Assembly (NCBI RefSeq): GCF_014191305.1
Contig: NZ_JACHWJ010000003.1
Coordinates: forward strand, 248,001 to 312,000
Source of the DNA: Pseudoclavibacter helvolus
GTDB lineage: Bacteria > Actinomycetota > Actinomycetes > Actinomycetales > Microbacteriaceae
Reading direction: 5' to 3'
DNA length: 64,000 bases
Below the pieces are notes generated by a model. The model searched no databases. It saw only the letters and a program-made list of their open reading frames with translations, and was not told where the DNA came from. Within the stretch, counting starts at the first letter, position 1. Every line of letters begins with the position of its first letter. The position numbers and the translations under genes were made by a program. Positions 1,186 through 59,866 of this stretch are shown piece after piece.

Positions 1186-1263
1186 TGACCAACTTCGGTG
1201 ACAATTCGAACTTCGCGCCCCGATTCGGAGCGATTTCGGCCGAACAAGCACTCAAGTTGGCCA
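1186..1263. repeat. 78-bp palindromic repeat, family 1, copy A
   Basis: An imperfect inverted repeat begins TGACCAACTTCGGTGA and ends CTCAAGTTGGCCA. It has the same 78-bp length and terminal words as the elements at 58494-58571 and 59789-59866, and closely resembles 8862-8937. The centre is not conserved between copies. It lies between two genes on the same strand and is not followed by a T run. Confidence 0.7.
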
Positions 1264-1343
1264 GGCGTCCCGGTGTCCGGAGGCGAGGCGGGGCCTGCGT
1301 TGCCCGCCCGCGGTAGAGTCCACGGCATGTGGGAGAGCAAGGA

Positions 1344-2006
1344 GTGAGCGGCGGTCTGGTCGCTGCGCTGCTCGGGCTCGCGATCGTCGACTCGCTGAAC
1401 CTCTCGACGATCGCCGTCGTGATCCTCATCCTGCTCACGGTGCAACGGCCGGTGGCAACCGGATGGGTCTACGCGGCCGGCGCCGTCGTCGCGTTCTTCG
1501 GGCTGACGATGCTCGTCTACTTCGGGGCGAGCTTCGCCGGCACGCTCGTGGAGGATCTCGCGACTTGGATGCGCCGCATCATCTTCGTCGGCTTCGGGGT
1601 CGTGTTCGTCGTGTTCGGCGTGCGGCGCTTCCGCACACGCGAGCGCCGCGGCTATCCGCTGCTGCGCTGGGTGAACCCGATCACCGCCTTCCCGCTGGGC
1701 ATGGTCGCGACGCTCGCCGATCTCCCGAACGCCTTCCCCATGTTCTTCGCCGTCGAACGGCTCATCGACGCCAACGTCCCCGCGCCGGCCGCACTCACCG
1801 CGCTCGCGGGCTACACGGTGGTCTACGCCATTCCGACGGTGCTCGCGCTGGTGCTCGGCATCGTCTTCAAGGACCGGCCGCGCGACCGCTTCCGGGAGGT
1901 CTACGACCGACTCACCGGCGGCGAGGTGAGGGCGAGCCGGCCGATGGCGGGGCTGCACTTCGCGATCGCGGCGGCCTGCTTCGTGGTGGCCGCCTTCTTC
2001 GTCTGA
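1344..2006 (+). CDS. GAP/Sap family (LysE-like) integral membrane protein
   Basis: A protein of about 220 residues with roughly six hydrophobic segments and little soluble sequence. The opening SGGLVAALLGLAIVDSLN and the internal NPITAFPLGM resemble the GAP (sulfolipid-1-addressing, LysE-like) family, whose characterised relatives are linked to moving small molecules or glycolipids across the membrane. The substrate here is unknown. The GTG at 1344 is preceded by GGGAGA at a normal distance; an in-frame GTG at 1329 would add five residues. It is followed 41 bp later by another membrane protein gene, so the two may be co-transcribed. Confidence 0.75.
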   Translation: MSGGLVAALLGLAIVDSLNLSTIAVVILILLTVQRPVATGWVYAAGAVVAFFGLTMLVYFGASFAGTLVEDLATWMRRIIFVGFGVVFVVFGVRRFRTRERRGYPLLRWVNPITAFPLGMVATLADLPNAFPMFFAVERLIDANVPAPAALTALAGYTVVYAIPTVLALVLGIVFKDRPRDRFREVYDRLTGGEVRASRPMAGLHFAIAAACFVVAAFFV

Positions 2007-2047
2007 GCGTCGTGGGTGGCTCGGCGGTCGTGAGTAGTCTCGCTCAC

Positions 2048-2608
2048 ATGAGCATCGAGAAAGCGCCGCGGTCGACCGCGGCCATCGTGGTCGGCTGCGT
2101 CGGGTTCCTGCTCGTGACCGGGTACGCGGTCCTCGGGACGCTGCAGGTTCTCGTGCTCGACCCGCTCGCGGCGGTCCCCGACATGAGCCTCGAGGAGATC
2201 TACATACACGCAGCTCGCTCCAACGAGACCATTCACGTCTGGGTCGTCGTCACGCTCCTGGGCCCGGGGTTGTTGCTGGGGCTCGGGAGTCTTGTGCTCT
2301 CCTTCAGGCGGGGCGCGACGTGGGTCCAGAGCGCTGCCGTGGCTTCCGGCCTCCTCTTCCTCGGTGGGCTTCCCTTCTTCTGGGCGTGGTTCGGTGTCGG
2401 TATGAATATCGCGGATGCGTTCGGCACCAGCGGTGGTGACCACACTGGCCTGGGCGCGGTCATGTGGGCGACGAGTGGATGCGGGGCGCTGGTCTTGCTC
2501 CTGCTCGCGGTCTGGGTGGGCGTCAGGAGCGGTGTCAGGGCTTGGTGGGGCCGCCGCGCGGTGCTCGCCCAGCCGGAACTCGCTGACCCTCCACATAGCG
2601 AGGCGTAG
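2048..2608 (+). CDS. Hypothetical membrane protein with four predicted helices
   Basis: A 186-residue protein not recognised from any named family. It has hydrophobic segments near residues 11-38, 63-83, 90-115 and 140-160. An acidic stretch with an EEIYIHAARSNETIH-type sequence separates the first and second segments, and the tail is charged and proline-rich. The layout is typical of small actinobacterial inner-membrane proteins. It starts at ATG 2048, downstream of the GAP-family gene in the same direction. No enzymatic motif is visible. Confidence 0.7.
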   Translation: MSIEKAPRSTAAIVVGCVGFLLVTGYAVLGTLQVLVLDPLAAVPDMSLEEIYIHAARSNETIHVWVVVTLLGPGLLLGLGSLVLSFRRGATWVQSAAVASGLLFLGGLPFFWAWFGVGMNIADAFGTSGGDHTGLGAVMWATSGCGALVLLLLAVWVGVRSGVRAWWGRRAVLAQPELADPPHSEA

Positions 2609-2697
2609 CATCGGAAGGAACCCCCCTCCCGGGTTCGCGGCGCCTCGCGTCGCACACTGAAGCCGGGCCGTCGCTCCGCCCGGAGAGAGGCAGCGCC

Positions 2698-3723
2698 ATG
2701 AAAGCACTGCAGTACCGCGCGATCGGCTCGCGCCCCGAACTCGTCGAGATCGATACCCCAACGCCCGCCGCGGGCGAGATCCTGCTCAAGGTGACGGCCG
2801 CCGGCGCCTGCCACTCGGACGAGTTCATCATGGGCGCCTCCGAGGAGGAGTACTCCTTCAAGCCGCTGCCGCTCACGCTCGGCCACGAGGTCGCGGGTGT
2901 CGTCGAGGCGATCGGCAGCGGCGTCCGAGACGTCGAGGTCGGCGAGGCTGTCATCGTCTACGGGCCCTGGGGCTGCGGACGCTGCTACCACTGCGCCGGC
3001 GGGGCTGAGCAGAACTGCGAGAAGGGGATGCGCGCGCCCGGCATCTACAGTGACGGCGGCATGGCCGAGTACATGATCTTCGACGACGCACGCCACCTCG
3101 TGCCGATCGGCGACCTCGACCCCGTCAAGAACGTGTCGCTCACCGACGCCGGACTCACCCCGTACCGGGCGGTGAAGTCGGCGCTGCCGAAGCTCGTTCC
3201 CGGCACGACCGCGGTTGTCATCGGCTCCGGAGGTCTCGGCCACGTCGCGATCCAGCTGCTTAAGGCGCTCTCGTCGGCGACGGTTGTCGTGCTCGACGTC
3301 GGCGAGGCGCAGCTCGAGCTCGCCCGCACAGTCGGCGCGGACCACACCTTCTTGTCGAACCCGGATGCGATCCCCGCCGTCAAGGACCTCACACGAGGCC
3401 TGGGCGCGACGGTGGTCTTCGACTTCGTCGGCATCCAGCCGACCGCCGACCTGTCGGCGAAGATGGTCGCTGCCGCCGGGTCCGTCGTGGTCGTCGGAGT
3501 CGCGAGCGGGGCTGTGCCCATCGGTCAGACGACGGTGCCGCTCGACGTCACCGGCCGCGCCATCAACTGGGGCTCCAGGACGGAGCTCATGGAGGTCGTG
3601 GAGCTCGCGAAGCGCGGTGCCATCAACATCCACGTCGAGCAGTTCTCGCTCGACGAGGCTCCCGCCGCCTACGAGAAGCTGCACGCCGGCGAGATCCGCG
3701 GCCGCGCGGTCATCGTCCCGTAG
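2698..3723 (+). CDS. Zinc-dependent NAD(P) alcohol dehydrogenase
   Basis: A medium-chain dehydrogenase of 341 residues. The N-terminal GroES-like half carries the catalytic zinc site (AGACHSDEF, then GHEVAGVVEAIG) and a structural zinc loop with CGRCYHC and a later Cys in QNCEKG. The Rossmann half contains GSGGLGHVAIQL for the NAD(P) pyrophosphate. Such enzymes interconvert primary or secondary alcohols and carbonyls; the substrate is not determinable. The start at ATG 2698 has the purine-rich GAGAGAGG 8 bp upstream. It is probably monocistronic, because a 58-bp palindrome and a convergent gene follow. Confidence 0.92.
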   Translation: MKALQYRAIGSRPELVEIDTPTPAAGEILLKVTAAGACHSDEFIMGASEEEYSFKPLPLTLGHEVAGVVEAIGSGVRDVEVGEAVIVYGPWGCGRCYHCAGGAEQNCEKGMRAPGIYSDGGMAEYMIFDDARHLVPIGDLDPVKNVSLTDAGLTPYRAVKSALPKLVPGTTAVVIGSGGLGHVAIQLLKALSSATVVVLDVGEAQLELARTVGADHTFLSNPDAIPAVKDLTRGLGATVVFDFVGIQPTADLSAKMVAAAGSVVVVGVASGAVPIGQTTVPLDVTGRAINWGSRTELMEVVELAKRGAINIHVEQFSLDEAPAAYEKLHAGEIRGRAVIVP

Positions 3724-3760
3724 CAAGCATTTACCCTCTCGCCCGTCCGGCTCCCGCGTG

Positions 3761-3818
3761 CATCCACGCGAGCAATGCATGCTCATCTCGAAACGAACAT
3801 GCACCGCTCGTGTGGATG
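3761..3818. repeat. 58-bp palindromic repeat, family 2, copy A
   Basis: The left arm CATCCACGCGAGC (3761-3773) pairs with GCTCGTGTGGATG (3806-3818), with one mismatch. A second element of exactly 58 bp at 25196-25253 aligns without gaps at about 42 of 58 positions. Here it lies between convergent genes, so it could also end transcription, although no T run follows. Confidence 0.7.
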
Positions 3819-3865
3819 CGCCTTACGCCAGGCAGGTGGGGCGACCGGGCGCGAGCTGGCGCGGC

Positions 3866-4510
3866 TCAGTACGCGACGCCGAAGCGCGCGCGGCGGTGGG
3901 CTGGTGACTCGATCTCGGCGACGATCGCTGCCGCGAAGTCGGCGCCGGAGATGTTCGAGTCGCCGTTGGCATCGGTGAGGAGCACGTCGCCGCCGATGCG
4001 GTACTCGCCGAGCGCCTCGCCTGGTGCCCACGCGCCGAAGGCGGCGGCGGGGCTCACGTAGAACCAGTCGAGTCCGGGGTCGGATGCGCGCAGGTCGTCG
4101 AGCACGCCCGCCATCTCGGCGGCCTCGGGCTTCACTGCATCCGGGAAGCCGTCGGTGTCGGCGAGTCGAGGACCGCCTTCGGCGACGAGCAGCGAACCGG
4201 CGCCACCGACGACCCCGAAGCGCACGCCCTGCTTCGCGGCGAGCGCCGCGGCCGTGGCGAGGACGCCGCGGGTGCGCCTCTCGAGTTCGCCGCGCGGCGA
4301 CAGGGCGGAGACGACAACCTCGGCGCCGTCGAAGGCGCGGTCGAGGGCGCCGTCTTCCAGCACGCTGCCGGTCACGTAGCTGACGCCGTCGAGCTGCGCG
4401 TCCGGCGCGGAGCGGCTGACGGAGGTGACCTCGTGGCCCGCGGTTGCGGCGGCCTTGACGAGGTTGCTTCCGGCGTATCCGGTTCCGCCGAGGATGGTGA
4501 TCTTGGCCAT
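3866..4510 (-). CDS. NAD(P)-dependent oxidoreductase, NAD(P)H-binding (atypical SDR)
   Basis: A 214-residue Rossmann protein opening MAKITILGGTGYAGSNLVKA, with the GGTGYAG dinucleotide-binding turn of atypical short-chain dehydrogenases (NmrA/YwnB-like). No classical YxxxK catalytic pair is obvious, as is common for this class. It is transcribed away from the HxlR regulator at 4690, and the shared 179-bp spacer carries inverted repeats that look like operators. It is therefore probably repressed by that regulator and induced by reactive electrophiles or redox stress, as known for HxlR/oxidoreductase pairs (inference). Confidence 0.85.
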   Translation of the reverse strand: MAKITILGGTGYAGSNLVKAAATAGHEVTSVSRSAPDAQLDGVSYVTGSVLEDGALDRAFDGAEVVVSALSPRGELERRTRGVLATAAALAAKQGVRFGVVGGAGSLLVAEGGPRLADTDGFPDAVKPEAAEMAGVLDDLRASDPGLDWFYVSPAAAFGAWAPGEALGEYRIGGDVLLTDANGDSNISGADFAAAIVAEIESPAHRRARFGVAY

Positions 4511-4586
4511 GGTGGTCCTTTCGTCGCGGCGGCCGGTCTCGGGCGCCGACAGTCACCGTAGGAGACCGACTGCGGGGAGGGGAAGA

Positions 4587-4673
4587 AGGCACTTTGCAGG
4601 GCGTCAGTTACCGCAAAGTGCCTGTGGTGCATCCCTTGAGTCTCCTTCGGTAACTGAGTACCGTGCAGTTACC
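4587..4673. promoter_or_regulatory. Probable HxlR operator region (two inverted repeats)
   Basis: A perfect 11-bp inverted repeat, AGGCACTTTGC (4587-4597) and GCAAAGTGCCT (4613-4623), is followed by GGTAACTG (4649-4656) and CAGTTACC (4666-4673). A third CAGTTACC lies inside the first loop at 4605-4612. The sites fill the spacer between the divergent oxidoreductase and HxlR genes, the expected place for autoregulatory HxlR binding. Confidence 0.55.
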
Positions 4674-4689
4674 CGAAGAAAGGTGGGGC

Positions 4690-5058
4690 ATGTCCGAGCC
4701 GCTGTGGGACCCGTACCTTCGCGACTGCCCGTCGCGGAGGCTGCTCGACCGCATCGGCGATCGCTGGACGGTGCTGGTCGTCGGCACGCTGCACGAGGGC
4801 CCGAAGCGCTTCTCTGAGATTCAGGCGGCGGTCGACGGCGTCTCGCAGAAGATGCTCACGCAGACGCTCCGCGGGCTGGAGCGCGACGGCCTCGTCACGC
4901 GCACCGTGTTCCCGCAGGTGCCGCCGCGCGTCGCCTACGAGCTGACGGCATCCGGTCGCACCCTGCTCGGCCCGTTGCGCGTCCTCACCGAGTGGGCGAC
5001 CGAGCACATGTCCGGTGTCGCGGAGGCGCAGCGGGAGTACGACACCGCGAGCGGATAA
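4690..5058 (+). CDS. HxlR family transcriptional regulator
   Basis: A 122-residue winged-helix regulator. The family hallmarks are visible in order: CPSRRLLDRIGDRWTVLVV near the N-terminus (the redox-relevant Cys is the first residue quoted), RFSEIQAAVDGVSQKMLTQ as the recognition helix, and LRGLERDGLVTR leading into the wing. ATG 4690 is preferred over an upstream in-frame ATG at 4663 because AAAGGTGG lies just before it and the extra residues are not family-like. It is divergent from an NAD(P)-binding oxidoreductase and upstream of an NmrA-like oxidoreductase; both are likely targets. Confidence 0.92.
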   Translation: MSEPLWDPYLRDCPSRRLLDRIGDRWTVLVVGTLHEGPKRFSEIQAAVDGVSQKMLTQTLRGLERDGLVTRTVFPQVPPRVAYELTASGRTLLGPLRVLTEWATEHMSGVAEAQREYDTASG

Positions 5059-5196
5059 ACCCGCCGGCCTGAGCCCGGATGTGCGAACACAGGAAAACAG
5101 GAAGCTCGCAAGCCGAGCACGGAGCCAGAACAAAAGCACCGACGGCAGAACAGCAGAACAGCAACGCAGCAGCACCGACAGTTCGAGCAGTTCATC

Positions 5197-6066
5197 ATGA
5201 CCGCAGCACCCACCGACCGCATCGCGGTGACCGGCAGCACGGGAGCGGTCGGCGGCCTCGTCGCGCGCCGGCTCGCTGATGCCGGGGCCGCCCAGCTCCT
5301 CCTCGCGCGCACTCCGGCGAAGGCGCCGAGGCTGCCGGGGTGCGTGGTCGCGCCCTTCAGCTACGCGGATCGCGACGCATCCACGGAAGCCCTCCAGGGC
5401 ATCCGCACGCTGTTCATGGTGTCGGCGGCGGAGAGCGAGTCGCGACTGGACGAGCACAAGGCGTTCATCGACGCGGCCGCAGACGCCGGGGTCGAGCACG
5501 TCGTGTACACGTCCTTCTTCGGAGCTTCGCCCGACTCGACGTTCACGTTGGCCCGGGACCACTTCGCGACGGAGGAGCACCTCAAGGCCTCCGGGATGAC
5601 GTGGACCTTCCTGCGCGACAACTTCTACATGGACGTCATGCCGATGTTCGTGGGCGACGACGGCGTGCTCCGCGGGCCCGCCGGCGACGGTCGGGTGTCG
5701 ATCGTGAGCCGCGCCGACGTGGCGGCGGTCGCGTCGAGCGTGCTGCTCGCACCGGATGCGCACCAAGGGGCGACGTACGACCTGACTGGCCCGGAGGCGC
5801 TCACGGCGACCGAGATCGCAGCGGCGATCACCCACGTTTGGGGCGCGGACATCACGTTCCACGACGAGACGCTCGACGAGGCGTACGAGTCGAGGAAGAA
5901 ATGGGGAGCACCCGCCTGGCAGAACGACGCCTGGGTCAGCACGTACACGGCCATCGCGAGCGGTGAGCTGTCGCGCGTTTCCGACGATGTGGAGCGGATC
6001 ACCGGCCGGGCGGCGCTGTCGTTCGCGGAGTACCTGGCAGGCGGGGAGCTCGGCGTCAGCGACTAG
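5197..6066 (+). CDS. NmrA/QorB-like NAD(P)H-binding oxidoreductase
   Basis: A 289-residue atypical short-chain dehydrogenase. The N-terminal Rossmann turn is VTGSTGAVGGLVARRL, followed by VVAPFSYADRDA and TLFMVSAAESESRLDEH as in QorB/YtfG-type NAD(P)H:quinone reductases. The mid-protein TFLRDNFYMDVMP block is typical of the same group. Only 138 bp separate it from the HxlR gene upstream; that stretch is AC-rich with CAGAACAGCAGAACAGCA-like short repeats and no gene. Co-regulation with HxlR is likely but inferred. Confidence 0.85.
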   Translation: MTAAPTDRIAVTGSTGAVGGLVARRLADAGAAQLLLARTPAKAPRLPGCVVAPFSYADRDASTEALQGIRTLFMVSAAESESRLDEHKAFIDAAADAGVEHVVYTSFFGASPDSTFTLARDHFATEEHLKASGMTWTFLRDNFYMDVMPMFVGDDGVLRGPAGDGRVSIVSRADVAAVASSVLLAPDAHQGATYDLTGPEALTATEIAAAITHVWGADITFHDETLDEAYESRKKWGAPAWQNDAWVSTYTAIASGELSRVSDDVERITGRAALSFAEYLAGGELGVSD

Positions 6067-6075
6067 CGGCGCGCG

Positions 6076-6513
6076 TCAGCTCTTCGTGAGGTCCTGGGCG
6101 AGCATCACGATGATGCCGCTCGGGCCGCGCAAGTAGGTGAGCTTGTAGACGTCCTGGTAGTTCGCGACGCCGCGGAGCGGGTGGCAGCCGTGCTTGGCGG
6201 CGATGGCCAGCGATTCGTCGATGTCGTCGACAGAGAACGCGACGCGGTGCATGCCGATCTCGTTGGGCAGCGTCGGCTCGGTCTCGATGGCGTCGGGGTG
6301 GATGTACTCGAAGAGCTCGAGCTGTCCGTGGCCGTCCGGCGTCTGCAGCACCGCGATCTTGGCGTGGTTGCCGTCGAGGCCGACCGCGGTCGAGGCCCAG
6401 TCACCGCTGACCTCGTCGCGGCCGAGCACCGTGAGACCGAGGTCGGTGAAGAAGGCGATGGTGGCTTCGATGTCGCGGACGGCGATACCGACGTTCTCAA
6501 GTTTGATGGGCAT
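6076..6513 (-). CDS. VOC (glyoxalase/bleomycin resistance) family protein
   Basis: A single-domain vicinal-oxygen-chelate protein of 145 residues with two beta-alpha-beta-beta-beta modules. The first begins LENVGIAVRDIEATIAFFTD, the second MHRVAFSVDDIDESLAIA. It resembles the methylmalonyl-CoA epimerase/lactoylglutathione lyase branch, in which one His and one Glu per module bind a metal; the reaction is not assignable. ATG 6513 (MPIKLEN) was chosen; ATG 6522 would add three residues. It is convergent with the NmrA-like gene, with a 9-bp gap. Confidence 0.85.
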   Translation of the reverse strand: MPIKLENVGIAVRDIEATIAFFTDLGLTVLGRDEVSGDWASTAVGLDGNHAKIAVLQTPDGHGQLELFEYIHPDAIETEPTLPNEIGMHRVAFSVDDIDESLAIAAKHGCHPLRGVANYQDVYKLTYLRGPSGIIVMLAQDLTKS

Positions 6514-6556
6514 GTTCCGCATGCTACCCAGCCTGGTCGAGAGCGCCTCGCGCGGC

Positions 6557-7333
6557 TCAGGCCCCGGTGCGGCGCACCCACCCGACGCGGCCGCCGATGG
6601 GCCAGGTCGTGAGTCGCTCAGTAGCGGGGTCGCCCCAGAGCTCGGCGAGGTCGCGCCCGACGTCTTCGAGGAGGCGCGCCTGCCCGGCCTCCCGCGCGGC
6701 CCGCACGGCTGACCAGGTCGAGAAGTAGCCGAGCAGCGCATCCAGCGTCAGCCGCTTCTGGATGCTCGGGGCCTGGAACTCGATCTCCTCGAACGGGAAC
6801 GGCAGGTCGCGGTACTCGCGTTCGACCAGGCGCCGAGACGGCGGCCAGTAGGCGTCGAGGTCTTCGGCGTAGAACTGCTGGGCGCGTCGGTTGATGGATG
6901 GGTCGTCGATGCGCAGGATGCCGTAGCAGAGCAGCGCGATGATGCCGCCGTCTGCGCTCACGCGGGTGACCTCGTCGTAGAACCTGGGGAGGTCGAACCA
7001 GTGCGCGGCCTGGGCGGCGCTCACGAGCCCGACTGAGCCGTCGCCCAGGGTCGGCGGCAGCGACTCGGCCGGCGCCTGCTGGTATTCGACGCGCGGATGC
7101 GGGGCCGCGTTCGCGATCTGCTCGTGGCTCGGGTCGAGGCCGACGACGTGATCGAAGCTCTCCGCGAGCGTGGTCGTGAACTGGCCGTTCCCGCACCCCA
7201 CGTCGACGGCGAGGTCGGTGCTCAGCGCCAGTTGGGCGAGCTCGGCGGCGAGGGAGGTCGGGTAGGTGGGGCGGAACTGGGCGTAGGCCTGCCCGCCCTC
7301 GTCGAACCAGTTGCGCGCATCCGTGTGGGTCAT
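6557..7333 (-). CDS. Class I SAM-dependent methyltransferase
   Basis: A 258-residue small-molecule methyltransferase. SAM-binding motif I reads AVDVGCGNGQFTTTLA, motif II contains VVGLDPSHEQI, and the post-motif region has the AQAAHWFDLPRFYDEVTRV block of ubiquinone/menaquinone-like (Methyltransf_11) enzymes. N-terminal NWFDEGGQAYAQFRPTYP is typical of the TAM-like group. The acceptor cannot be predicted. It starts at ATG 7333. The upstream and downstream genes are on the same strand, but with gaps of about 43 bp each. Confidence 0.9.
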   Translation of the reverse strand: MTHTDARNWFDEGGQAYAQFRPTYPTSLAAELAQLALSTDLAVDVGCGNGQFTTTLAESFDHVVGLDPSHEQIANAAPHPRVEYQQAPAESLPPTLGDGSVGLVSAAQAAHWFDLPRFYDEVTRVSADGGIIALLCYGILRIDDPSINRRAQQFYAEDLDAYWPPSRRLVEREYRDLPFPFEEIEFQAPSIQKRLTLDALLGYFSTWSAVRAAREAGQARLLEDVGRDLAELWGDPATERLTTWPIGGRVGWVRRTGA

Positions 7334-7376
7334 GGTGCTGATGCTAGGGCTGTTCGTCGGGGAAGCGCCCGTGGCG

Positions 7377-8066
7377 TCAGCCAGCCAGGCGCTCGAACTC
7401 CTCCATGACGCGCGGGTGCCGCAGCACGCGAAAGTGCCCGCCCGTCTCCAGCCGCACGTTCTCGGCCCCCAGCAGGAAGCTGCCCTTCGGGATGTGCGGG
7501 TCGAAGCAGCCGAAGACCGAGACGATGCGCGAGTTCACCTCCTCCTCCCTCGAGAGGGCGAGGATCGTGCGGTCGCGCGGCGAGAAGATCCGCAGGCTCG
7601 GGGCGAACAGCAGTCGCGCGTACGACGATCCGCCGAACGGCGTCGCCACCGCCAGCATCGAGCAGATGCGCGGAACACCAGCCCCCTGCGTCATCGCGTA
7701 CTTGCCGACGAGCCCGCCTTTGCTATGGGCGACGATGATGACGTCGTCGAGGCGCTGGCGTTCGAGGTAGTCGACGAGATGCGTGGTCGCCTCTGGCACG
7801 GGCTTCGTATTGAAGCCGAGCGGGTCGAGGACATGCACCGGATGCCCCGTCGCGTGGATGGAGCGAATGAGCGGCAGCATGAAGCGCCACGGCTCGTAGA
7901 CGCCGGGGATGACGACGACGGGAGCACGGTGGCCGTCGAGGAAGCTTGCGGCGTCGGTGCGGTCGAGCGCGGCCCGGGCCTGCTGGGCGACGACGTAGGC
8001 GTAGTCAAGCGTCCACCAGCCGAGGCGCTTGGCCGAACGGCGGATCGAGCGGAGCATGCGTCTCAT
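7377..8066 (-). CDS. Alpha/beta-fold hydrolase (triacylglycerol lipase-like)
   Basis: A 229-residue alpha/beta hydrolase. The nucleophile elbow is VIIVAHSKGGLVGKYAM (GHSxGG-like, with Ala before His), preceded by PVVVIPGVYEPWRFM as the oxyanion loop; a late GGHFRVL supplies the likely catalytic His. The family includes lipases and lipase-like esterases; the substrate is unknown. Its ATG at 8066 overlaps the stop of the DUF429 gene in an ATGA junction, which indicates translational coupling. Confidence 0.87.
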   Translation of the reverse strand: MRRMLRSIRRSAKRLGWWTLDYAYVVAQQARAALDRTDAASFLDGHRAPVVVIPGVYEPWRFMLPLIRSIHATGHPVHVLDPLGFNTKPVPEATTHLVDYLERQRLDDVIIVAHSKGGLVGKYAMTQGAGVPRICSMLAVATPFGGSSYARLLFAPSLRIFSPRDRTILALSREEEVNSRIVSVFGCFDPHIPKGSFLLGAENVRLETGGHFRVLRHPRVMEEFERLAG

Positions 8067-8818: not shown

Positions 8819-8861
8819 GCTACGCGAACGCGCCCGGCGGGGCGGTCAGGTCTGGCGCGGC

Positions 8862-8937
8862 TGACAACTTCGGTGACTGAAGCGAGCTTTCTGCCGCGGA
8901 AGCGGCTGTTCGAGCCGTGGAGTCACCGAAGTTGTCA
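8862..8937. repeat. 76-bp palindromic repeat, family 1, copy B
   Basis: The perfect 17-bp arms TGACAACTTCGGTGACT (8862-8878) and AGTCACCGAAGTTGTCA (8921-8937) flank a 42-bp core. It is the shorter variant of the family found at 1186, 58494 and 59789. It sits between the 5' ends of two divergent genes, so it is not a transcription terminator for either. Confidence 0.8.
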
Positions 8938-15175: not shown

Positions 15176-15188
15176 CCGGTACCAACGA

Positions 15189-15237
15189 ACCGCGGCCCCG
15201 TGCATCCACTCGTGAAGTGGAGGCACGGGGCCGCGGT
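15189..15237. terminator. Bidirectional hairpin terminator
   Basis: A 22-bp stem (15189-15210 with 15216-15237, one mismatch) closes a 5-nt loop. It sits between the convergent HxlR and rhamnosidase genes. No long T run follows on either side, so efficiency is inferred from stem strength alone. Confidence 0.75.
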
Positions 15238-15253
15238 TGCGAGACCGTCGTGA

Positions 15254-24632: not shown

Positions 24633-24730
24633 GTTCAATTTTCGGGCGAAGTGCGCGCAGGGCTGGAGGCGATGCCCGGAACTCCGGGGGAGCGGACGGG
24701 CGACCGCCGCACTTCGCCCGATAATTGACC
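24633..24730. repeat. 98-bp near-perfect palindrome
   Basis: The 23-bp arms (24633-24655 and 24708-24730) match at about 20 positions, including the shared core TCGGGCGAAGTGCG. They are separated by a 52-bp Gly-codon-like GC-rich core. It lies in the 343-bp gap between rhaS and rhaM, which otherwise holds only the terminator and no gene. No second copy is seen in the window. Confidence 0.65.
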
Positions 24731-25144: not shown

Positions 25145-25195
25145 GTAACTCCGGCGACGTTCCGCCGGTTCCTGCCCCCGACCTGCTTGACCGCG

Positions 25196-25253
25196 CATCC
25201 ACACGAGCGATGCTTCATCGTTTCGACACGAACGGGCAGTTGCCGCGTGGATG
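25196..25253. repeat. 58-bp palindromic repeat, family 2, copy B
   Basis: The left arm CATCCACACGAGC (25196-25208) opposes GCCGCGTGGATG (25242-25253). It is the same length as the element at 3761-3818, with conserved arms and a TTCGA.ACGAAC centre. A threefold GGCCAGAA repeat follows at about 25267-25291. Both lie between convergent genes. Confidence 0.65.
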
Positions 25254-25354
25254 CCAGGGGAGGGTGGGCCAGAAGGCCAGAAGGCCAGAAGGTGAGGGGC
25301 ACGAGGGGCGCGCTGAGGTTCCCTGCGGTTCGCTGCGCAGGCGCCGACGGATGC

Positions 25355-25909: not shown

Positions 25910-26204
25910 CAGACCTGGCCCGTCAGCACCTCGGCCTGCCTCTGCGCATGTGTTTGCCCCACGTCTCTCCGCGCCTCTGCGACAGACCTGGGCCTCCGGC
26001 ACGCGCATCTGCCGTTCGAGCTGCGGAACCCACAGGTCGCCGCGGGGCTGCTGCCGGCGGCCGCAGCAGACGTGGGCCCTGGGCGCCCGCATCCGCTGCC
26101 CGGGCTGCGGAACCCACAGGTCTCCGCGTCGTCTCTCTCAGCCGCAGCAGACCTGGGCCTTTGGCATGCGCATCCGCCGCCCGAGCTGCGCAAGCCGCAT
26201 GTCT
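25910..26204. repeat. Tandem array of AGACCTGGG palindromes (family 3)
   Basis: Four units begin CAGACCTGG or CAGACGTGGG at 25910, 25983, 26067 and 26148, spaced 73-84 bp. The two best preserved carry the opposing word CCCACAGGTC at 26029-26038 and 26113-26122. GCGCATC(C/T)GC and CTGCGGAACC recur inside units. The array fills most of the 399-bp gap between the nucleotidyltransferase and xdhC genes. Two related copies lie at 36906-37035. Confidence 0.65.
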
Positions 26205-26305
26205 TTGCGGAGTGACTCCGAGGGCGAGCGCCCGGGGTTCGCCGCACGCGTGGGCTCACTCGCATCAGCACGCGCTCCCTCACAGCAATCCGCATCCGCG
26301 TCACC

Positions 26306-33133: not shown

Positions 33134-33135
33134 CG

Positions 33136-45996: not shown

Positions 45997-46048
45997 AGTT
46001 GTGGCACTGTGCTGCTCCCGCTCCGGGGAACAGCACAGTGCCACAACT
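45997..46048. repeat. 52-bp perfect palindrome
   Basis: AGTTGTGGCACTGTGCTG (45997-46014) and CAGCACAGTGCCACAACT (46031-46048) are perfect 18-bp arms around a 16-bp core. It lies in the 372-bp gap after lldD (45887-46258), which contains no gene. It could end lldD transcription but has no T run. A different palindrome follows at 46108. Confidence 0.7.
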
Positions 46049-46107: not shown

Positions 46108-46214
46108 GTGATGGGTTTTCCCGACTGGTGATGGGTAAATTCCCACCACCAGTCGGCGAAACCCATCACGCTGGTCCGGCGGAACCCATCACCGGTTGGT
46201 GAGACCCATCAGTG
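46108..46214. repeat. GTGATGGGTTT/AAACCCATCAC palindrome with extra half-sites
   Basis: The 23-bp arms (46108-46130 and 46147-46169) differ at two positions and flank a 16-bp core. Two more ACCCATCA(C/G) words follow at 46184-46193 and 46204-46212, so the stretch looks like an incomplete further copy. No gene overlaps it. Confidence 0.6.
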
Positions 46215-54185: not shown

Positions 54186-54494
54186 CGGGCCGTCCTCATG
54201 ATCGGGGCGGCGATTGCGAGCTTGGGGGAGGTCGAGAAATGCACGCTTTCGATCCTATTCGGGGTCCGCCCACGCAAAGTCTCAGCCTGCACGGCCGCCT
54301 GCGCTAGCACCGCAGCCTGCAAGCGCGCGCGATTTTGCCAAGGCAACGCCCAGGTCCGGGCCGCGTCGTGCATGAGAGGGCGGAGGGCAGTTCTCCCCGT
54401 CACGCGCCGAGACGCCAACGCACCCGATGGCCCCAAATCGCGGGGCTACGCTCGCCCACACCCCGGACCAGCCGGGCCTGTCGAAGGAGTCCCC
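54186..54494. other. 309-bp intergenic region without a gene
   Basis: Divergent spacer between the oxidoreductase gene and a small secreted protein gene. It should hold both promoters, but no convincing -35/-10 pair was found. A short inverted TTGCC/GGCAA pair lies near 54337. Confidence 0.4.
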
Positions 54495-54719
54495 ATGCGT
54501 CGAATCGCCTCAAGCATCACCGCAGCGCTCTTCGCCGTCGGTATCGCCGTCTCAGCGCCTGCGATCGCCAATGCAGGCACCGAGCAGATGTACTGGACCG
54601 GCGGCTCGCTCGCCGACTGCCAGGCCGTGCAGCGCACCTACATCAGCTCGTGGACCAAGATAACCGAGTCATGCCACCGCAACGGCAATGGCTACTCGTT
54701 CACCTGGACGTCGATCTGA
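54495..54719 (+). CDS. Small secreted hypothetical protein
   Basis: A 74-residue protein not recognised from any family. Residues 1-27 form a clear signal peptide (MRRIASS, hydrophobic core, cleavage after ANA). The mature part is about 47 residues, aromatic-rich (Trp, Tyr), with two Cys (in LADCQAVQ and TESCHRNG) that could form a disulfide. Ribosome site AAGGAGTCCCC before ATG 54495 supports expression. It ends 4 bp from the convergent RNase gene. Function unknown. Confidence 0.8.
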   Translation: MRRIASSITAALFAVGIAVSAPAIANAGTEQMYWTGGSLADCQAVQRTYISSWTKITESCHRNGNGYSFTWTSI

Positions 54720-54723
54720 CAGA

Positions 54724-56232
54724 TCATGCAACGCTGAGGGTGACCGCCCGCTTCTCGGGGTCCGCGGCTTCGACGCGCACTCGCACCGCGGATCCCAGCT
54801 CGAGGGCCGAGGCGTCACCGACGAGCCTGGCCCGCACGGCCGGGTCTCGCAGCAGCACCGTAGCCTTCGCCTGCCCGCCGTCGGCGCCGCCGGTTGGTGA
54901 CGACTCGACGACGATCCCGTCCAGCTCCTCGCCGAGCAGCGGCTCGAGCAGCACGGCCTCGAGCAGGTCGACCGTCTCCCGCTCGTACGCGTTCGCGCGC
55001 CGAGACCCGTCGGCCATCTCGCCGGGGAGCGCGTCCAGCGCATCCACCACCCAGGCCGGAGCGGGCTCACCGGCGCAGAAGGCGAGCGCGATCTCGGTGC
55101 CGTACCGGTCGACGAGGCGTCGCAGGGGAGCGGTGACGTGCGCGTACTCGGCCGCAATGGCGCTGTGGGATGCGTCGCTTGGCACTTCGGGGTTGGCTGG
55201 TGTTCCGAAGGCGACGTAGCCGGCACCGCGGAACAGGCGGGTCGCCTCGGTCGCGAACGCCGCGTGCTCGGGCTGCGACGAGTCGATGGTTCTGACGAAC
55301 TCCGCGTACGACTTGCCGGGCGACCACTCGAAGCCGAGCGTGATCGCGACGCGGCGTAGCCGGTCGACGTCCTCGTCGCGAGCCGGATCGAGCGTGCGCC
55401 AGATCCCCACGCCGGCGCGGCGCTGCAACCGGGCCGCCGCAATGCCGGTGAGCAGCGACAGCTGCGCGTTGAACTCCTCGCACGCGAGCGCCTTGCGCAG
55501 CACGAGCGTGTAGCGTGCGCCGTCATTGCTGCGTTCGATCTCCTGATCAGGCACCTCGAGGGTCGCACCGCCACGAGCGAACTGGGCATCGATGCGCAGC
55601 TGGCCCACCTCGGCCAGGAGCTGCAGGAGCTCGCCCGCGGTCCCTTCGTCGAGCTGCCGCTGCACGGCGGGGTAGTCGAGCTGCGCGCGCGAGCGAACGA
55701 TCGATCGACGTACGTCGATGTCGCCGACAAGCTCACCCGAGCCGTCGAGGCGCATCCGCCACACGATGGCAGGCCGGTCGACGTCTGGGAGCAGGCTCGC
55801 GGCACCCTCACTGAGTACGGCCGGATGCAGTCCGTAGCGACCGTCGGGCCCGTACACGGTGAGCGCGCGACGGTGCGTCTCGGCGTCCAGCGCGCCGCCA
55901 GGCTCGACGAATGCCGCCACGTCGGCGATCGCATAGAAAACCTCGTAGGCGGCGACGTCATCGATGCCTGATCCGACCGCATCGTCGACCCGACGCAGGA
56001 AGAAGGCCTGGTCGAGGTCGCGGGAGCCGACCGGGTCGAGCGTCACGAAAGGCAGCTCGCGCAGGTCTTGTCGGCCGGGCCCTGCCTCAAACGACCGCGA
56101 CGCCGCGGCCTCCGCCTCGGCAAGCGCATCTGCGGGGTAGTCGACAGGGATCTCGAGCTCGGTGCGGAGCCGCTCCAGGTAGGGGCCGAGCACCGCGGCG
56201 GCTGCGCCTGCCTGCACTGCGCGCGTGCTCAT
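54724..56232 (-). CDS. RNB-domain ribonuclease (RNase II/R-like)
   Basis: A 502-residue exoribonuclease. The RNB domain opens PFVTLDPVGSRDLDQAFFL, in which the paired Asp residues bind Mg; DASHSAIAAEYAHVTAPLRRLVDRY is the later conserved motif. It is shorter than RNase R or II because N-terminal cold-shock domains are mostly absent and the C-terminal OB region is abbreviated. It degrades single-stranded RNA 3' to 5'. Actinobacterial versions of this size are common. Confidence 0.9.
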   Translation of the reverse strand: MSTRAVQAGAAAAVLGPYLERLRTELEIPVDYPADALAEAEAAASRSFEAGPGRQDLRELPFVTLDPVGSRDLDQAFFLRRVDDAVGSGIDDVAAYEVFYAIADVAAFVEPGGALDAETHRRALTVYGPDGRYGLHPAVLSEGAASLLPDVDRPAIVWRMRLDGSGELVGDIDVRRSIVRSRAQLDYPAVQRQLDEGTAGELLQLLAEVGQLRIDAQFARGGATLEVPDQEIERSNDGARYTLVLRKALACEEFNAQLSLLTGIAAARLQRRAGVGIWRTLDPARDEDVDRLRRVAITLGFEWSPGKSYAEFVRTIDSSQPEHAAFATEATRLFRGAGYVAFGTPANPEVPSDASHSAIAAEYAHVTAPLRRLVDRYGTEIALAFCAGEPAPAWVVDALDALPGEMADGSRRANAYERETVDLLEAVLLEPLLGEELDGIVVESSPTGGADGGQAKATVLLRDPAVRARLVGDASALELGSAVRVRVEAADPEKRAVTLSVA

Positions 56233-56394
56233 TGGGTGCTCAACTCCTGAGCGGGGACTCGGCTGCTCGACTGCATAGCGTCAACGTAGCTGGTGCCACT
56301 GACATCCGAGCCGAGCGTGCCTCTCGCGGTGCGTTCAGCTCTCGAATTCGCCCGATGACCGGGCTACCCTCGGTGCAAGCACGAGGAGCGCCGC

Positions 56395-57369
56395 ATGGAT
56401 ACACAACTCGAGACGTGGCTGCTGGACTCCGACCCTGCGCTGCGATGGCAGGTTGAGCGGGACCTGCTTGGTGCGCCCGAGGAGCAGTGGAAGGCTACGC
56501 GCTCACGCATGGCGACCGAGGGGTTCGGGGCCAAGCTCCTCTCGCATCAGGACCCAGACGGGACCTGGGCCGGCGGCGCGTTCTTCCCCGAGGGCTGGGG
56601 ATGGGAGAACAACGATCCTCAGCCGTGGACCACCACAACCTGGGTGCTCAAGGACCTCCGCGAGTGGGGGATGGACGCGCGGATGCTCGAAGGCACGGCC
56701 GAGAAGCTCGAGAAGGTCACGTGGGAGTACGACGACCTGCCCTACTGGCACGGCGAAGTCGACTGCTGCATCAACTCCTGGACCCTGTCGAACGGGCTCT
56801 GGCTCGGTGCGGGCGTCGATGGCATCGTGACCTGGTTCCTCGACCACCAGCAGGGCGACGGCGGCTGGAACTGCGAGTGGGTGGAGGGCTCCGCGAAGTC
56901 CTCATTCCACTCGACCCTTAACTCGCTCATCGGCCTGCTCGACTACCAGCTCGCCACCGGCGACGCGGGGCGCGTGCGCGCATCCCGCCGACGCGGCGAG
57001 GAGTACCTGCTCGAGCGCTCGCTGTTCCGCAGGCTGTCGACGGGGGAGCCGTTCTACGAGCAGGCCACGAGCCTCGTCTACCCGCGCCGCGCCTGGTACT
57101 CCGTGCTCGGAGCGGCTGACTACTTCCGCGCAGCCGCGCTCGCGGACGGCACGAGGCCGGACACGAGGATGGCGGAGGCGGTCGAGATCATCCGTTCCCA
57201 GCGCCAGCCGGACGGCACCTGGCTGCAGGGGCATCGGCTACTCGGCGATGTCTGGGCGCACGTCGACGCCCCGAAGGGTGAGCCGTCGAAGTGGGTCACG
57301 TTGCAGGCGCTTCGCATCCTCGACTGGTGGGACAGTCCCGACCGGCGGGATGCGGCGGCGACGCTCTGA
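56395..57369 (+). CDS. Squalene cyclase/prenyltransferase-like alpha-toroid protein
   Basis: A 324-residue alpha/alpha-toroid protein. Three QW-like repeats are visible: HQDPDGTW (51-58), HQQGDGGW (151-158) and QRQPDGTW (269-276). It is only half the length of squalene-hopene cyclase and lacks a DxDD catalytic motif, so true cyclase activity is unlikely. It probably represents a single-domain toroid of unknown role. GAGGAGCGCCGC precedes ATG 56395. Confidence 0.75.
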   Translation: MDTQLETWLLDSDPALRWQVERDLLGAPEEQWKATRSRMATEGFGAKLLSHQDPDGTWAGGAFFPEGWGWENNDPQPWTTTTWVLKDLREWGMDARMLEGTAEKLEKVTWEYDDLPYWHGEVDCCINSWTLSNGLWLGAGVDGIVTWFLDHQQGDGGWNCEWVEGSAKSSFHSTLNSLIGLLDYQLATGDAGRVRASRRRGEEYLLERSLFRRLSTGEPFYEQATSLVYPRRAWYSVLGAADYFRAAALADGTRPDTRMAEAVEIIRSQRQPDGTWLQGHRLLGDVWAHVDAPKGEPSKWVTLQALRILDWWDSPDRRDAAATL

Positions 57370-57425
57370 GCGGACACGGATGCGATCCATGCGTTCTCCA
57401 TAGATCGGTAGGTCACGATGTGCGC

Positions 57426-58478
57426 ATGGTTGACTTCAACAAGATCCTCGGCGCGGCCTCCAAGGCCCTCGGTAACTCGGGCAACTCGGGCGCAAACCGG
57501 GGCGGCAAGAGCGGCTCCGGGGACTGGAAGGACATGGTTCGCAAGGTCGCTGACCAGGTGACGGGCGACGGTCAGCAGCCGCGAGGACAGCAGAGCTACC
57601 CGAGCCAGCAGAGAAACCCAAGCCAACAGAGCCAGCAGGCGTACCCGCGCCGCGACAGCTCCTCTTCCCAGCACGATCGGTACGCGCAGCAGCCACCGAG
57701 CGCCCCGAACTATGGATCGCGCCCCGGTGCGGGCGCGGCCTCTGGGACCGCAGCCGACAAGGCCGCGATCGCGAAGTACGACTATCTCCTCAAGACAGCG
57801 GCGCCCGACCAGCTCGAGCAGGCGCACCGAGAGGCGTTCCAGCGGCTCACACCGGCCCAGCGCGACCAGGTGCGGGAGCGCCTGAGCGCCGAGTCCGGGC
57901 CGTACGATCGCCCGCAGTCGAGTTCGCCGGACGACCTGGCGCGCGCCGCAACGCGCGGCGAGGTGCAGCGACCCGGTTTCATGGCGAAGGTGCTCGGCGC
58001 GGGCAAGCGCATCGCCGGATCGCGGGGCGGCGGGAACTTCACGCCCGGGTCGAGCCGTGGCGGTTCTTCTCGCTTCGGCCGCGGCATGGGGGTCGCGGGT
58101 GCGGCGGCGGCGGGAGCGGGTGCTGGCGCGCTCGGCGGCATCGCCCTTGGGGTGGTCGGCGGAGCCGTCGCGAGCTCCGTCGCACTTCCACTGATCGGTG
58201 ACGCGATGGCCTCCGGTATCGACTTCGACGGCATGGCCGCATCCGGAATTGAAGGCTTCGAGGGGCTCACGGCCGACCTCGGCGAGTTCGGCGGAATCGG
58301 CGGAATCGGCGACGCGGTGTCCGGTCTCGGCGACCAGGTCGGCGGGTTCGGCGAGCAGCTGAGCGGTGCCGGCGAGCAGCTGACGGGCGCTGGTGACCAG
58401 TTCCTCGGCGGCATCGAAGAGCAGGCGGGCAACTTCGGCTTCGACATTCCGGGCCTCGGCGACCTCTTCGGCAAGTAG
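57426..58478 (+). CDS. Low-complexity Gly/Gln-rich hypothetical protein
   Basis: A 350-residue protein with no enzyme motif. The N-terminus (MVDFNKILGAASKAL) is followed by a Gln/Ser/Pro-rich tract, a charged helical segment (AKYDYLLKTAAPDQLEQAHR, then LTPAQRDQVRERLSA), a glycine-rich hydrophobic stretch (about 220-260) that may associate with the membrane, and a C-terminal array of short FGGIGG/GDQVGGFGEQL-like repeats. It resembles actinobacterial proteins sometimes labelled cation-transporting ATPase without evidence. Function unknown. Confidence 0.7.
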   Translation: MVDFNKILGAASKALGNSGNSGANRGGKSGSGDWKDMVRKVADQVTGDGQQPRGQQSYPSQQRNPSQQSQQAYPRRDSSSSQHDRYAQQPPSAPNYGSRPGAGAASGTAADKAAIAKYDYLLKTAAPDQLEQAHREAFQRLTPAQRDQVRERLSAESGPYDRPQSSSPDDLARAATRGEVQRPGFMAKVLGAGKRIAGSRGGGNFTPGSSRGGSSRFGRGMGVAGAAAAGAGAGALGGIALGVVGGAVASSVALPLIGDAMASGIDFDGMAASGIEGFEGLTADLGEFGGIGGIGDAVSGLGDQVGGFGEQLSGAGEQLTGAGDQFLGGIEEQAGNFGFDIPGLGDLFGK

Positions 58479-58493
58479 CGGCGCCGCTTGCTC

Positions 58494-58571
58494 TGACCAA
58501 CTTCCGTGATGGATCTGGCTTCGAAGCCTGCTGTCGCGGTAGGTGGCCTCGTTCATCACGGAAGTTGGCCA
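58494..58571. repeat. 78-bp palindromic repeat, family 1, copy C
   Basis: TGACCAACTTCCGTGATG (58494-58511) opposes CATCACGGAAGTTGGCCA (58554-58571), with one mismatch in 18 bp. The core is 42 bp, the same length as in copy B. It lies between two genes on the same strand. Confidence 0.8.
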
Positions 58572-58609
58572 GGACGGGCTTGGAAGTTGGTTCCCGTTAG
58601 GCTCGGCTG

Positions 58610-59746
58610 ATGGCGAATCGCAGCTACCTCTACGTTGTCGACGAGGCCCCGGGGCAGGGAGCTCCACTCACCAGGGTCACCGGTCTCTCCGAGTGGAATT
58701 GGGACGTGCCGCTTGTGCACGAGCTGCTCGTCTCGGGTTCCGGGCGCCTTGTTCCCTCGACGATCTGGGACGCGCCCGCCACGGCGATCCTCGGCGACTT
58801 CGACCAGGGCGTCGCCAACCTCGAGCGCCTCTTCGCGCAGCTCCCACAGGATGAGGAAACGCAGCGGCAGGTTGCCGAAGCGCGAAGCGCGCTCGCCGAT
58901 CCCGACAAGCGGGGCAGGTACCTGCTGCTGGAGGTCGCCGAGATCCACGTGCTCGGCGTCACCGACGACGACAACCCGTTCCCTGAGATGCGCACGGAAG
59001 CCGAGGGCATGGTCTGCGATTCTGAGCGCGACGTCGAGCTGCTCATCCGCTATGCGCTTGAGCAGCCCGCGGACAAGCTCGACGAACTCACGGGCTCCGG
59101 CTCCTGGGCGAACAATCTGTACTTCGCGCCGACTGGAGATCCGCAGCAGGCGCCCCAGATTGAGCAGCCGCAGCCGCAGGCTGAGCCCGCCGTCGACATC
59201 GCGGTGCCGTCGCAGGCCTGGGATCAGACGACGCCACCTCAGGCGGCGCCTCAGCTCGCGCTGCCTGCGAACCAGCAGGCACCGCAGTTCCCGCCGCCGA
59301 CTGGTCAGCCGCAGCAGGTCCTCCTCACGAGGCCGCTCTCGAACGGGGCCACCCAGTGGGCGCTCGGGCTGCTGGCGCTCATCCCGTTCCCGTTCATAGG
59401 TGCGCTTGCCGCGGGCATCGTCATGATCATCACGGGTCGGTCGCGTGGTCCGGCGACCGACGCTGGCGAGCGGAACCGGACGGCTGCCTCGAACTGGGGC
59501 CTGACCTACCTGATCGCGACGGTTCTCCTGGTGACGCTGCACTTCTCGTTGCTGGTCAACCTGGCGAGTTTCAACGAATCGTTCGCGACGTCGTTCTACC
59601 CGATCGGCATCCCCATCACGATCTGGGTGGCAGTGTCGGCGGTGCACATCGTGTTTTCGATTGTCGGTTGCGTCAAAGCAACCCGGGGTCGGGTGTTCAA
59701 GCCCGTCGCGCTGCCGTTCTTCCGGCCGCGCGTGCACGTTCGCTGA
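58610..59746 (+). CDS. Hypothetical protein, soluble N-terminus plus DUF4870-like membrane domain
   Basis: A 378-residue protein. It opens MANRSYLYVVDE, like a group of uncharacterised bacterial proteins. A soluble acidic half (1-175) is followed by a Pro/Gln/Ala-rich linker (about 180-240) and a hydrophobic C-terminal domain (about 250-360) with three to four helices, including PFIGALAAGIVMIITGRS and VFSIVGCVKATRG as in DUF4870 proteins. Function unknown; the linked domains suggest a soluble sensor tethered to the membrane (inference). Confidence 0.7.
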   Translation: MANRSYLYVVDEAPGQGAPLTRVTGLSEWNWDVPLVHELLVSGSGRLVPSTIWDAPATAILGDFDQGVANLERLFAQLPQDEETQRQVAEARSALADPDKRGRYLLLEVAEIHVLGVTDDDNPFPEMRTEAEGMVCDSERDVELLIRYALEQPADKLDELTGSGSWANNLYFAPTGDPQQAPQIEQPQPQAEPAVDIAVPSQAWDQTTPPQAAPQLALPANQQAPQFPPPTGQPQQVLLTRPLSNGATQWALGLLALIPFPFIGALAAGIVMIITGRSRGPATDAGERNRTAASNWGLTYLIATVLLVTLHFSLLVNLASFNESFATSFYPIGIPITIWVAVSAVHIVFSIVGCVKATRGRVFKPVALPFFRPRVHVR

Positions 59747-59788
59747 CACCCGCCGCTGCCCGTGAGCTCGGCGTCTGCGAGCGGACCC

Positions 59789-59866
59789 TGACCAACTTGC
59801 GTGATTGGTGGCCGCATCCGGTGTCTAACGGCGAACGACAGGGCATCTCGTCCCGGAAGTTGGCCG
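59789..59866. repeat. 78-bp palindromic repeat, family 1, copy D
   Basis: It begins TGACCAACTTGCGTGAT and ends CCCGGAAGTTGGCCG, the most diverged copy. The arms match over CCAACTT and a few flanking bases. It lies between convergent genes. Confidence 0.6.

What the first reader, a model, noticed from the sequence alone, without database searches (positions are those of the whole stretch)
1186..59866. Family 1: four 76-78 bp intergenic palindromes with conserved arms and variable cores
Seen: elements at 1186-1263, 8862-8937, 58494-58571 and 59789-59866 share TGACCAACTT...AAGTTGGCCA arms and near-identical length, but their centres do not align. Contexts differ (same-strand, divergent and convergent genes), so terminator function does not explain them. 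Known: REP/BIME-type and MITE elements behave this way. Inference: a dispersed palindromic element, possibly mobilised by a transposase not in this window.
Basis: partly seen in the sequence, partly recalled or inferred. Interest (0 to 1): 0.7.

Follow-up and report, generated by a model that had tools for sequence, protein, structure and literature searches.

The report
Fixed-length two-ended palindromic genomic repeats
The four window elements belong to a family of dozens of short mirror-image DNA repeats in one small group of bacteria; their two ends and near-exact 78-base length are kept while the middle changes freely, which suggests that some still unknown protein reads the two ends as a pair.

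Summary
The four palindromes are real and at the stated places. They belong to a family of at least 48 places in this Pseudoclavibacter-group genome. Four of nine genus-mates also carry it; no other genus did among 299 Microbacteriaceae genomes. Each element is two inverted ~20-bp half-sites (25.6 bits each), 78 or 79 bp end to end, with largely unrelated cores. With a wide length range allowed, 55 of 56 perfect-arm elements agree within 1 bp; of 21 found through neighbouring genes, 20 are 78 bp. Many sites are shared between species, one in-frame inside nadB in five species. Arms diverge nearly three times more slowly than cores. Within subfamily A the arms do not covary significantly, and half-sites have no palindrome of their own, arguing against hairpin recognition. 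No IS200/RAYT-type transposase was found in 10 genomes. No target duplications and no near-identical dispersed copies were seen. Best reading: an old REPIN/MITE-like repeat whose paired ends are still read as double-stranded DNA by an unidentified protein. New variant of a known kind.

The parts
1186..1263 (.). 78-bp element; left half of C type, right half of B type; between an aminotransferase class-III gene (7-1140 +) and a same-strand gene
   Evidence: the orthologous intergenic site in Pseudoclavibacter AY1H1 (L131) holds a 78-bp element with B-type arms
8862..8937 (.). 76-bp element of subtype C (CAACTTCGGTGAC arms, one C missing in both arms); between divergent DUF429 (-) and EamA (+) genes
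   Evidence: the orthologue in G006 largely keeps the arms, those in G001/G004 have both arms changed, none detected in G007
58494..58571 (.). 78-bp element, type A; between two same-strand genes (57426-58478 and the DUF7822 gene 58610-59746)
   Evidence: present in G004, half-remnant in G001, near-empty site with a single TGGCCA in G006, none detected in G007
59789..59866 (.). 78-bp element, type A; convergent, between the DUF7822 gene (+) and an ABC permease gene (-)
   Evidence: the orthologous interval in G006 holds an element with B-like arms; none detected in G004, nor in the 239 bp that could be searched in G001
58494..58513 (+). example of a ~20-bp outer half-site (TGNCCAACTT + inner NNGKGAY)
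   Evidence: half-site matrix from 88 halves, 25.6 bits; sharp outer edge 4 bp outside CAACTT

Best explanation
A clade-restricted, old family of non-autonomous, REPIN/MITE-like repeats. Each unit is a pair of inverted ~20-bp half-sites held at an end-to-end distance of 78 (sometimes 79) bp, with a core free to mutate. Shown: the anatomy, near-fixed length, copy number, clade restriction in the genomes searched, site sharing between species, slower change of arms than cores, no RAYT-family match. Inferred: the two ends are recognised as double-stranded DNA by one protein that must engage both at once (a transposase-like or domesticated end-binding protein), which is why length and ends are kept but the core is not. 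Arrays of neighbouring elements probably shrink by recombination or slippage between like ends, giving mixed elements and type switches at one site. The family shows no sign of spreading now.
For: Copy number: 24 perfect places in G000; model R2 gives 105 strand matches in G000 and 105, 100, 90 and 88 in G007, G006, G004 and G001, 0 in five other genus members (only 150 candidates per genome were scored). Length: (58-88 bp allowed) the other four carrier genomes gave 30 of 32 at 72 bp between CCAACTT ends, one at 73, one at 64; G000 21 of 24 at 72 and 3 at 73; four further matches in two distant genomes (G019, G056; 60, 63, 72 and 78 bp) were set aside as chance-like. Of 22 half-sites of G000 without a perfect partner, 18 have an imperfect partner at 78/79 bp, 3 are chance-like, 1 is a truncated element. 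Arms versus cores in 10 flank-found orthologue pairs: 33/320 versus 131/455 differences, one net length change. Within type A, left-right identity is not significantly above shuffles, and half-sites have no internal stem. Site sharing: 20 of 26 perfect-arm loci of other species lie at a G000 element site. nadB: in-frame element in 5 of 5 element-bearing species, none in the G003 orthologue. A+B arrays with partial loss at L103 and L108.
Against: No cognate protein was identified. No target-site duplication and only one near-empty site, so mobility is inferred. A few dispersed, non-orthologous core pairs score 31-37 where 3,000 shuffles reached at most 29: traces of common descent or composition, so cores are not wholly unrelated. 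Flank-based retention is modest: an element was detected in 16 of 36 site-by-genome comparisons. Arms do decay in some orthologues (L106/G007, L092/G007), so constraint is partial, and the matrix threshold favours good arms. Pooled over subfamilies, left and right arms covary; type B shows an excess at positions 18-24 (8 of 1000 shuffles), type A over all genomes a weak one (77-78 of 1000). Subtype C orthologues changed both arms together, which would also fit a hairpin.
Confidence: 0.5

Rival explanations
1. Host chromosomal sites: a nucleoid-structuring or regulatory protein binds the dyad and bridges the two half-sites; copies arose by duplication and are kept for a host function.
For: Arms are more conserved than cores in orthologous sites and length is kept; hardly any solitary half-sites in G000; elements are scarce on the contigs that carry dif: 12 of 124 against 35.8 expected; no shared gene function beside them in the loci compared.
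Against: Presence at a given site is not stable between species (16 of 36); four copies overlap predicted genes, three of them in proteins with Pfam matches, and tandem arrays look like repeat behaviour rather than placed sites. The dif-contig deficit is significant on its own only in G000 (p=2.9e-6; the other four p=0.07-0.52), and the lists for those four are partial.
Confidence: 0.25
2. RNA hairpins at gene 3' ends (bidirectional terminators or mRNA-stabilising structures), selected as RNA.
For: 20 of 40 intergenic elements lie between convergent genes against 23% of intergenic bases in the window, p=1.6e-4, array neighbours counted separately; a strong predicted fold for two of four; pooled arm covariation; palindromes act on both strands.
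Against: No significant arm covariation within type A; no T-run outside; an exact length is not needed for terminators; some copies lie inside genes. The convergent bias also fits avoidance of promoters.
Confidence: 0.12
3. A true REPIN family moved by a RAYT that has been missed or lost.
For: Architecture as in Bertels and Rainey 2011 (passages read): inverted conserved ends, less conserved spacer, spacer length important, doublet as the unit.
Against: PF01797 gives 0 of 10 genomes while the control rings in E. coli and four other named genomes; half-sites have no palindrome of their own; compensatory changes, common in REPINs by that paper, are not significant in type A.
Confidence: 0.08
4. 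Plain decayed MITE debris with no present constraint.
For: Some copies are decayed or halved; no activity seen.
Against: Arms change nearly three times more slowly than cores in ten orthologue pairs and length is kept even where arms decay.
Confidence: 0.05

Closest known systems
REPINs (REP doublets forming hairpins) with RAYT transposases
   Same: Two inverted conserved ends, poorly conserved spacer of set length, mostly extragenic, several subfamilies, doublet rather than single half as the unit (passages of PMC3116915)
   Different: No RAYT/Y1 match in 10 genomes; half-sites have no palindrome of their own; no significant compensatory pairing within type A; hardly any singlets in G000; no near-identical dispersed copies among 86 elements
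CGTC-tagged REP dimers
   Same: Dimers with spacers that can differ in sequence at similar length; said by the authors to lack, apparently, a dedicated transposase (passages of PMC3733652)
   Different: Half-sites lack a constant CGTC tag (sequences) and a stem-loop of their own; the passages I saw name no actinobacterium, and the word Actinobacteria does not occur in that text
MITEs
   Same: Short, inverted ends, no gene, dispersed; 50-500 bp (passages of PMC10969869)
   Different: No target-site duplications, no autonomous partner seen, cores mostly unrelated between dispersed copies
Rickettsia palindromic elements (in-frame RPEs)
   Same: Some copies sit inside open frames of unrelated protein genes: nadB, a glycosyltransferase, an ABC transporter
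   Different: 78 bp rather than the ~150 bp quoted for RPEs; mostly intergenic here (40 of 44)

Membership tests
REPIN/RAYT | two inverted conserved ends as the repeated unit | tested here: met
   doublets at 78/79 bp, hardly any singlets in G000
REPIN/RAYT | each end contains a REP, itself a palindromic stem-loop | tested here: not met
   172 half-sites of 24 nt: longest internal stem mean 3.13 (A), 2.81 (B), 3.33 (C) against 3.32, 3.28, 3.17 when shuffled
REPIN/RAYT | cognate IS200-like Y1 transposase (RAYT) in the genome | tested here: not met
   PF01797: 0 of 10 genomes, control rings in 5 of 14 named genomes; G000 is 97.2% complete
REPIN/RAYT | hairpin kept by compensatory changes | tested here: inconclusive
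   not significant within type A (47 elements), weak in B, present when subfamilies are pooled
MITE | target-site duplication | tested here: not met
   86 elements, direct repeats of 2-5 bp at the flanks not above shuffles; one near-empty site with TGGCCA leaves a 6-bp duplication conceivable
MITE | related autonomous transposon with the same ends | tested here: inconclusive
   in G000, all but four of the half-sites that match CCAACTTNNGKGM have a partner at 78/79 bp; single half-sites of the other genomes were not read out
Intrinsic terminator | GC stem followed by T-run | tested here: not met
   flank composition over 172 ends shows no A/T run
Known structured RNA family | match to an Rfam model | tested here: not met
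   window against Rfam 15: 0 matches at the gathering threshold

The most novel reading that the evidence does not exclude
The 78-bp spacing is a molecular ruler: an uncharacterised protein of this Pseudoclavibacter clade binds both half-sites of an element together, and the terminus-poor spread of these dyads gives them a chromosomal role; the family is a former mobile repeat turned into a host-maintained DNA-site system without any RAYT.
Probability: 0.25. Interest if true: 0.75.

Novelty: new variant of a known kind. Interest (0 to 1): 0.5.

Why it matters
REPIN-like doublets are tied to RAYT transposases and hairpin recognition. Here is a family with the same outline (two ends, fixed length, free core) in Actinomycetota, with no RAYT match and, in its main subfamily, no significant sign that pairing of the arms matters. 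That makes a clean question testable: what reads two double-stranded half-sites at 78 bp, and does the host or the repeat benefit? Four text searches of the held library found no description: Pseudoclavibacter, palindrom, repeat, intergenic: 0 papers; inverted repeats, intergenic, Microbacteriaceae, MITE: 0; palindromic, interspersed repeat, Actinobacteria, intergenic, inverted repeat: 1 general essay; repetitive extragenic palindromic, Actinobacteria, transposase, REP sequences: 3 papers on other organisms, listing only. The library lacks most subscription journals.

Tried and rejected
RAYT-REPIN membership: disfavoured. Integron attC-like sites: considered from memory (the end GTTGGNC resembles but does not fit the recalled GTTRRRY box); rejected, no integrase search was made. 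CRISPR-like inverted repeat with spacer: cores of many orthologues evolve by substitution; where cores are unrelated, neighbouring types alternate; rejected. Intra-element template switching as the reason for conserved arms: it should make the two arms of one element more alike than chance within a subfamily, which is not significant in type A. A shared gene function beside the elements: an all-against-all comparison of predicted proteins of the G000 loci and the window gave no recurrent family beyond common ones such as ABC transporters; one neighbour is a DUF559/MTES_1575 nuclease, with no second copy among those proteins. A sequence-independent scan for inverted repeats in 558 kb of fetched genus sequence showed no extra peak at 78 bp; the three unlabelled ones at exactly 78 bp are members of this family with altered arms. 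The pattern scan of viral contigs gave three hits: two weak, one (L154) identical to G000 C1:946998.

Limits: the other-species loci were found with fixed length and perfect arms, so length statements for those species rest. Gene calls come from a home-made codon-usage caller; the background is the window only (57 genes). The output was cut (20,361 characters in all), so part of the L089 alignment was not seen. In one search the L091 site gave no usable flank match; 36 of 48 possible comparisons (12 G000 elements, 4 genomes) were made, one with only 239 bp to search. One of six non-Pseudoclavibacter matches (L127, Prevotellaceae) scores 28.4, as high as the subtype-C window element; I take it for chance. 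One search used positions copied by hand from capped lists.
Full report
Check of the observation. The four elements are present at the stated coordinates, with lengths 78, 76, 78 and 78 bp. A position matrix of the half-site (20 bp, 25.6 bits from 88 halves) applied to both ends with lengths of 60-96 bp allowed finds exactly these four in the window and none in ten Markov-1 copies of it, 640 kb. The window lies in a 3.84-Mb, 12-contig genome, G000.

The family. CCAACTT and AAGTTGG, 54-76 bp end to end, give 24 places in G000, with no match for the reversed control. Searching single half-sites (CCAACTTNNGKGM) found further places. I read out the 22 half-sites of G000 in that list that had no perfect partner: 18 have an imperfect partner at 78 or 79 bp, three are chance-like matches, and one is an element cut short near a gene with an integrase core. 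My list of distinct places in G000 holds 48. A covariance model gives 105 strand matches in G000, 105 in G007, 100 in G006, 90 in G004, 88 in G001, and none in G002, G003, G005, G008 and G009 (an element can match on both strands, and at most 150 candidates per genome were scored). In 299 genomes of the family only members of this genus match: 4 of 299 genomes, 1 of 85 genera, with stricter filters and 15 candidates scored per genome. The fixed-length pattern in the collection of one genome per bacterial and archaeal species gave 32 stretches, 26 of them Pseudoclavibacter: P. terrae and strains AY1F1, AY1H1 and RFBB5. The six others score 28.4 or less, most far less; the best of them scores like the weakest window element (26.2). 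In one search, two distant genomes gave four matches of 60, 63, 72 and 78 bp, which I set aside as chance.

Anatomy. The outer edge is sharp: TGNCCAACTT, with no conservation beyond a C just outside (116 of 172 ends). Inside follow S, C, G, K, G, A, Y and a weak GAA, fading by about 20 bp. The central part shows neither conservation nor complementarity above shuffles. Half-sites have no stem of their own beyond shuffles. Three half-site classes occur: among 86 elements of the genus, 47 are A/A, 29 B/B, 4 C/C and 6 mixed. Pooled, left and right arms covary. Within A/A they do not match significantly more than shuffled pairs: 138 of 1000 shuffles reach the whole-arm value over all genomes and 472 of 1000 in G000, with the inner blocks at 77-78 of 1000 over all genomes. 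B/B shows an excess at positions 18-24 (8 of 1000). So the arms are paired mainly by class, not by base-pair compensation, in the main class.

Length. In one search, with 58-88 bp allowed between CCAACTT and AAGTTGG, the other four carrier genomes gave 30 of 32 at 72 bp, one at 73 and one at 64; G000 gave 21 of 24 at 72 and 3 at 73. Elements located only through their neighbouring genes gave 20 of 21 at 78 bp and one at 77, with 60-96 allowed, including elements with decayed arms. In ten flank-found orthologue pairs there were 131 core substitutions and one net length change, while the surrounding intergenic intervals usually differ in length by more.

Age and constraint. Twenty of 26 perfect-arm loci of other species lie at an orthologous G000 site that also holds an element; the other six had no G000 counterpart among my loci. 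Without an arm criterion, an element was detected in 16 of 36 site-by-genome comparisons, so loss is common too. Orthologous cores range from 95% identical to no better than unrelated cores (0.48 mean for unrelated). Arms differ at 33 of 320 positions and cores at 131 of 455 in the ten flank-found pairs (detection by the matrix leaves some bias towards good arms, and L106/G007, which fell below it, was added by hand). Among 3,655 pairs of elements, the strongly similar cores are those of orthologous sites and of neighbours in one array; a few dispersed pairs score 31-37, above the maximum of 29 in 3,000 shuffles but far below the 84 of identical cores. So there is no sign of recent dispersal, only faint traces of common descent.

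Site behaviour. Neighbours less than 250 bp apart occur 17 times in the scanned loci, with 5-198 bp between them. At L103 and L108 some species hold an A-like and a B-like element where others hold one of them (types read from the sequences). This can explain type switches at one site (L076, L079, L100) and mixed elements by recombination between like ends; that is inference. At the site of window 58494, G006 has a single TGGCCA where G000 has the element, and G001 has a right-half remnant. No direct repeats flank the elements above shuffles. At the subtype-C site of window 8862, G001 and G004 carry a related palindrome with both arms changed. At the L092 site G001 and G004 carry another palindrome, CAGTCAGGGTGACG.

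Context. Of 44 G000 elements, 20 are convergent, 16 tandem, 4 divergent and 4 overlap a predicted gene; convergent sites are over-represented against the window's intergenic bases (p=1.6e-4; members of one array are counted separately). Neighbouring genes show nothing in common in the sets examined. An element lies in-frame in the linker of nadB in all five carrier species (one of class A; the other four B by their sequences or translations), and the G003 orthologue has none; the other four genomes gave only distant homologues of about 38%. That the gene is nadB is my reading of the Pfam matches FAD_binding_2 and Succ_DH_flav_C. Elements are scarce on the contigs that carry dif: 12 of 124 against 35.8 expected, G000 4 of 48 (p=2.9e-6), the other four not significant singly, from partial lists. 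The dif pattern was recalled and gave one hit with 1-2 mismatches in each of six genomes.

What it is. The architecture is that of a REPIN: inverted conserved ends, a spacer where length matters, the doublet as unit (passages of PMC3116915). It is not a member by the tests made here: no Y1/RAYT match in 10 genomes, no palindrome in each end, no significant compensatory pairing in the main class. CGTC-type REP dimers also apparently lack a transposase (passages of PMC3733652), so lack of one is not unique. I take it as a RAYT-free, double-stranded relative in kind, old and no longer spreading, whose paired ends are read by an unknown protein (0.5). A host chromosomal site system is the main rival (0.25).

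Papers: I saw passages of PMC3116915, PMC3733652 and PMC10969869 and search listings; no paper was read in full.

Noticed in passing
window 24635-24728; similar in L104 1972-2090: Another long palindrome with arms around GGGCGAAGTGC...GCACTTCGCCC, 94 and 119 bp, so of variable length.
   Followed up: no
window 45997-46048 and 46108-46169: Two adjacent palindromes: AGTTGTGGC.../...GCCACAACT, with look-alikes of 46-52 bp in other loci (AGTTGTGGCCCGGTGCT), and GTGATGGGTTT.../...AAACCCATCAC.
   Followed up: no
window 4550-4656, 3758-3821, 15188-15238: Further inverted repeats; 3760-3851 also has a 71% complementary stretch at 25163-25254.
   Followed up: no
window 25983-26231: Three tandem copies of an ~84-bp unit, 69-74% alike.
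   Followed up: no
L086 4269-4340, L190 3145-3216, L088 4884-4953, L129 1631-1700: A separate palindrome family, TTTCGGGATGGGTT...AACCCATCCCGA, 70-72 bp.
   Followed up: no
L176 1795-1871, L178 1794-1872: A palindrome with arms CAGTCAGGGTGACG at the site where G000, G006 and G007 carry a family-1 element; near-equal length.
   Followed up: partly
L164-L167 and L169 (nadB locus): A 26-codon in-frame element in the nadB linker of five species, type A in one and B-like in four.
   Followed up: yes
L154 3024-3101: A 52.8-kb IMG/VR contig carries the same element as G000 C1:946998, whose next predicted gene in G000, about 530 bp away, is an ISL3-type transposase.
   Followed up: partly
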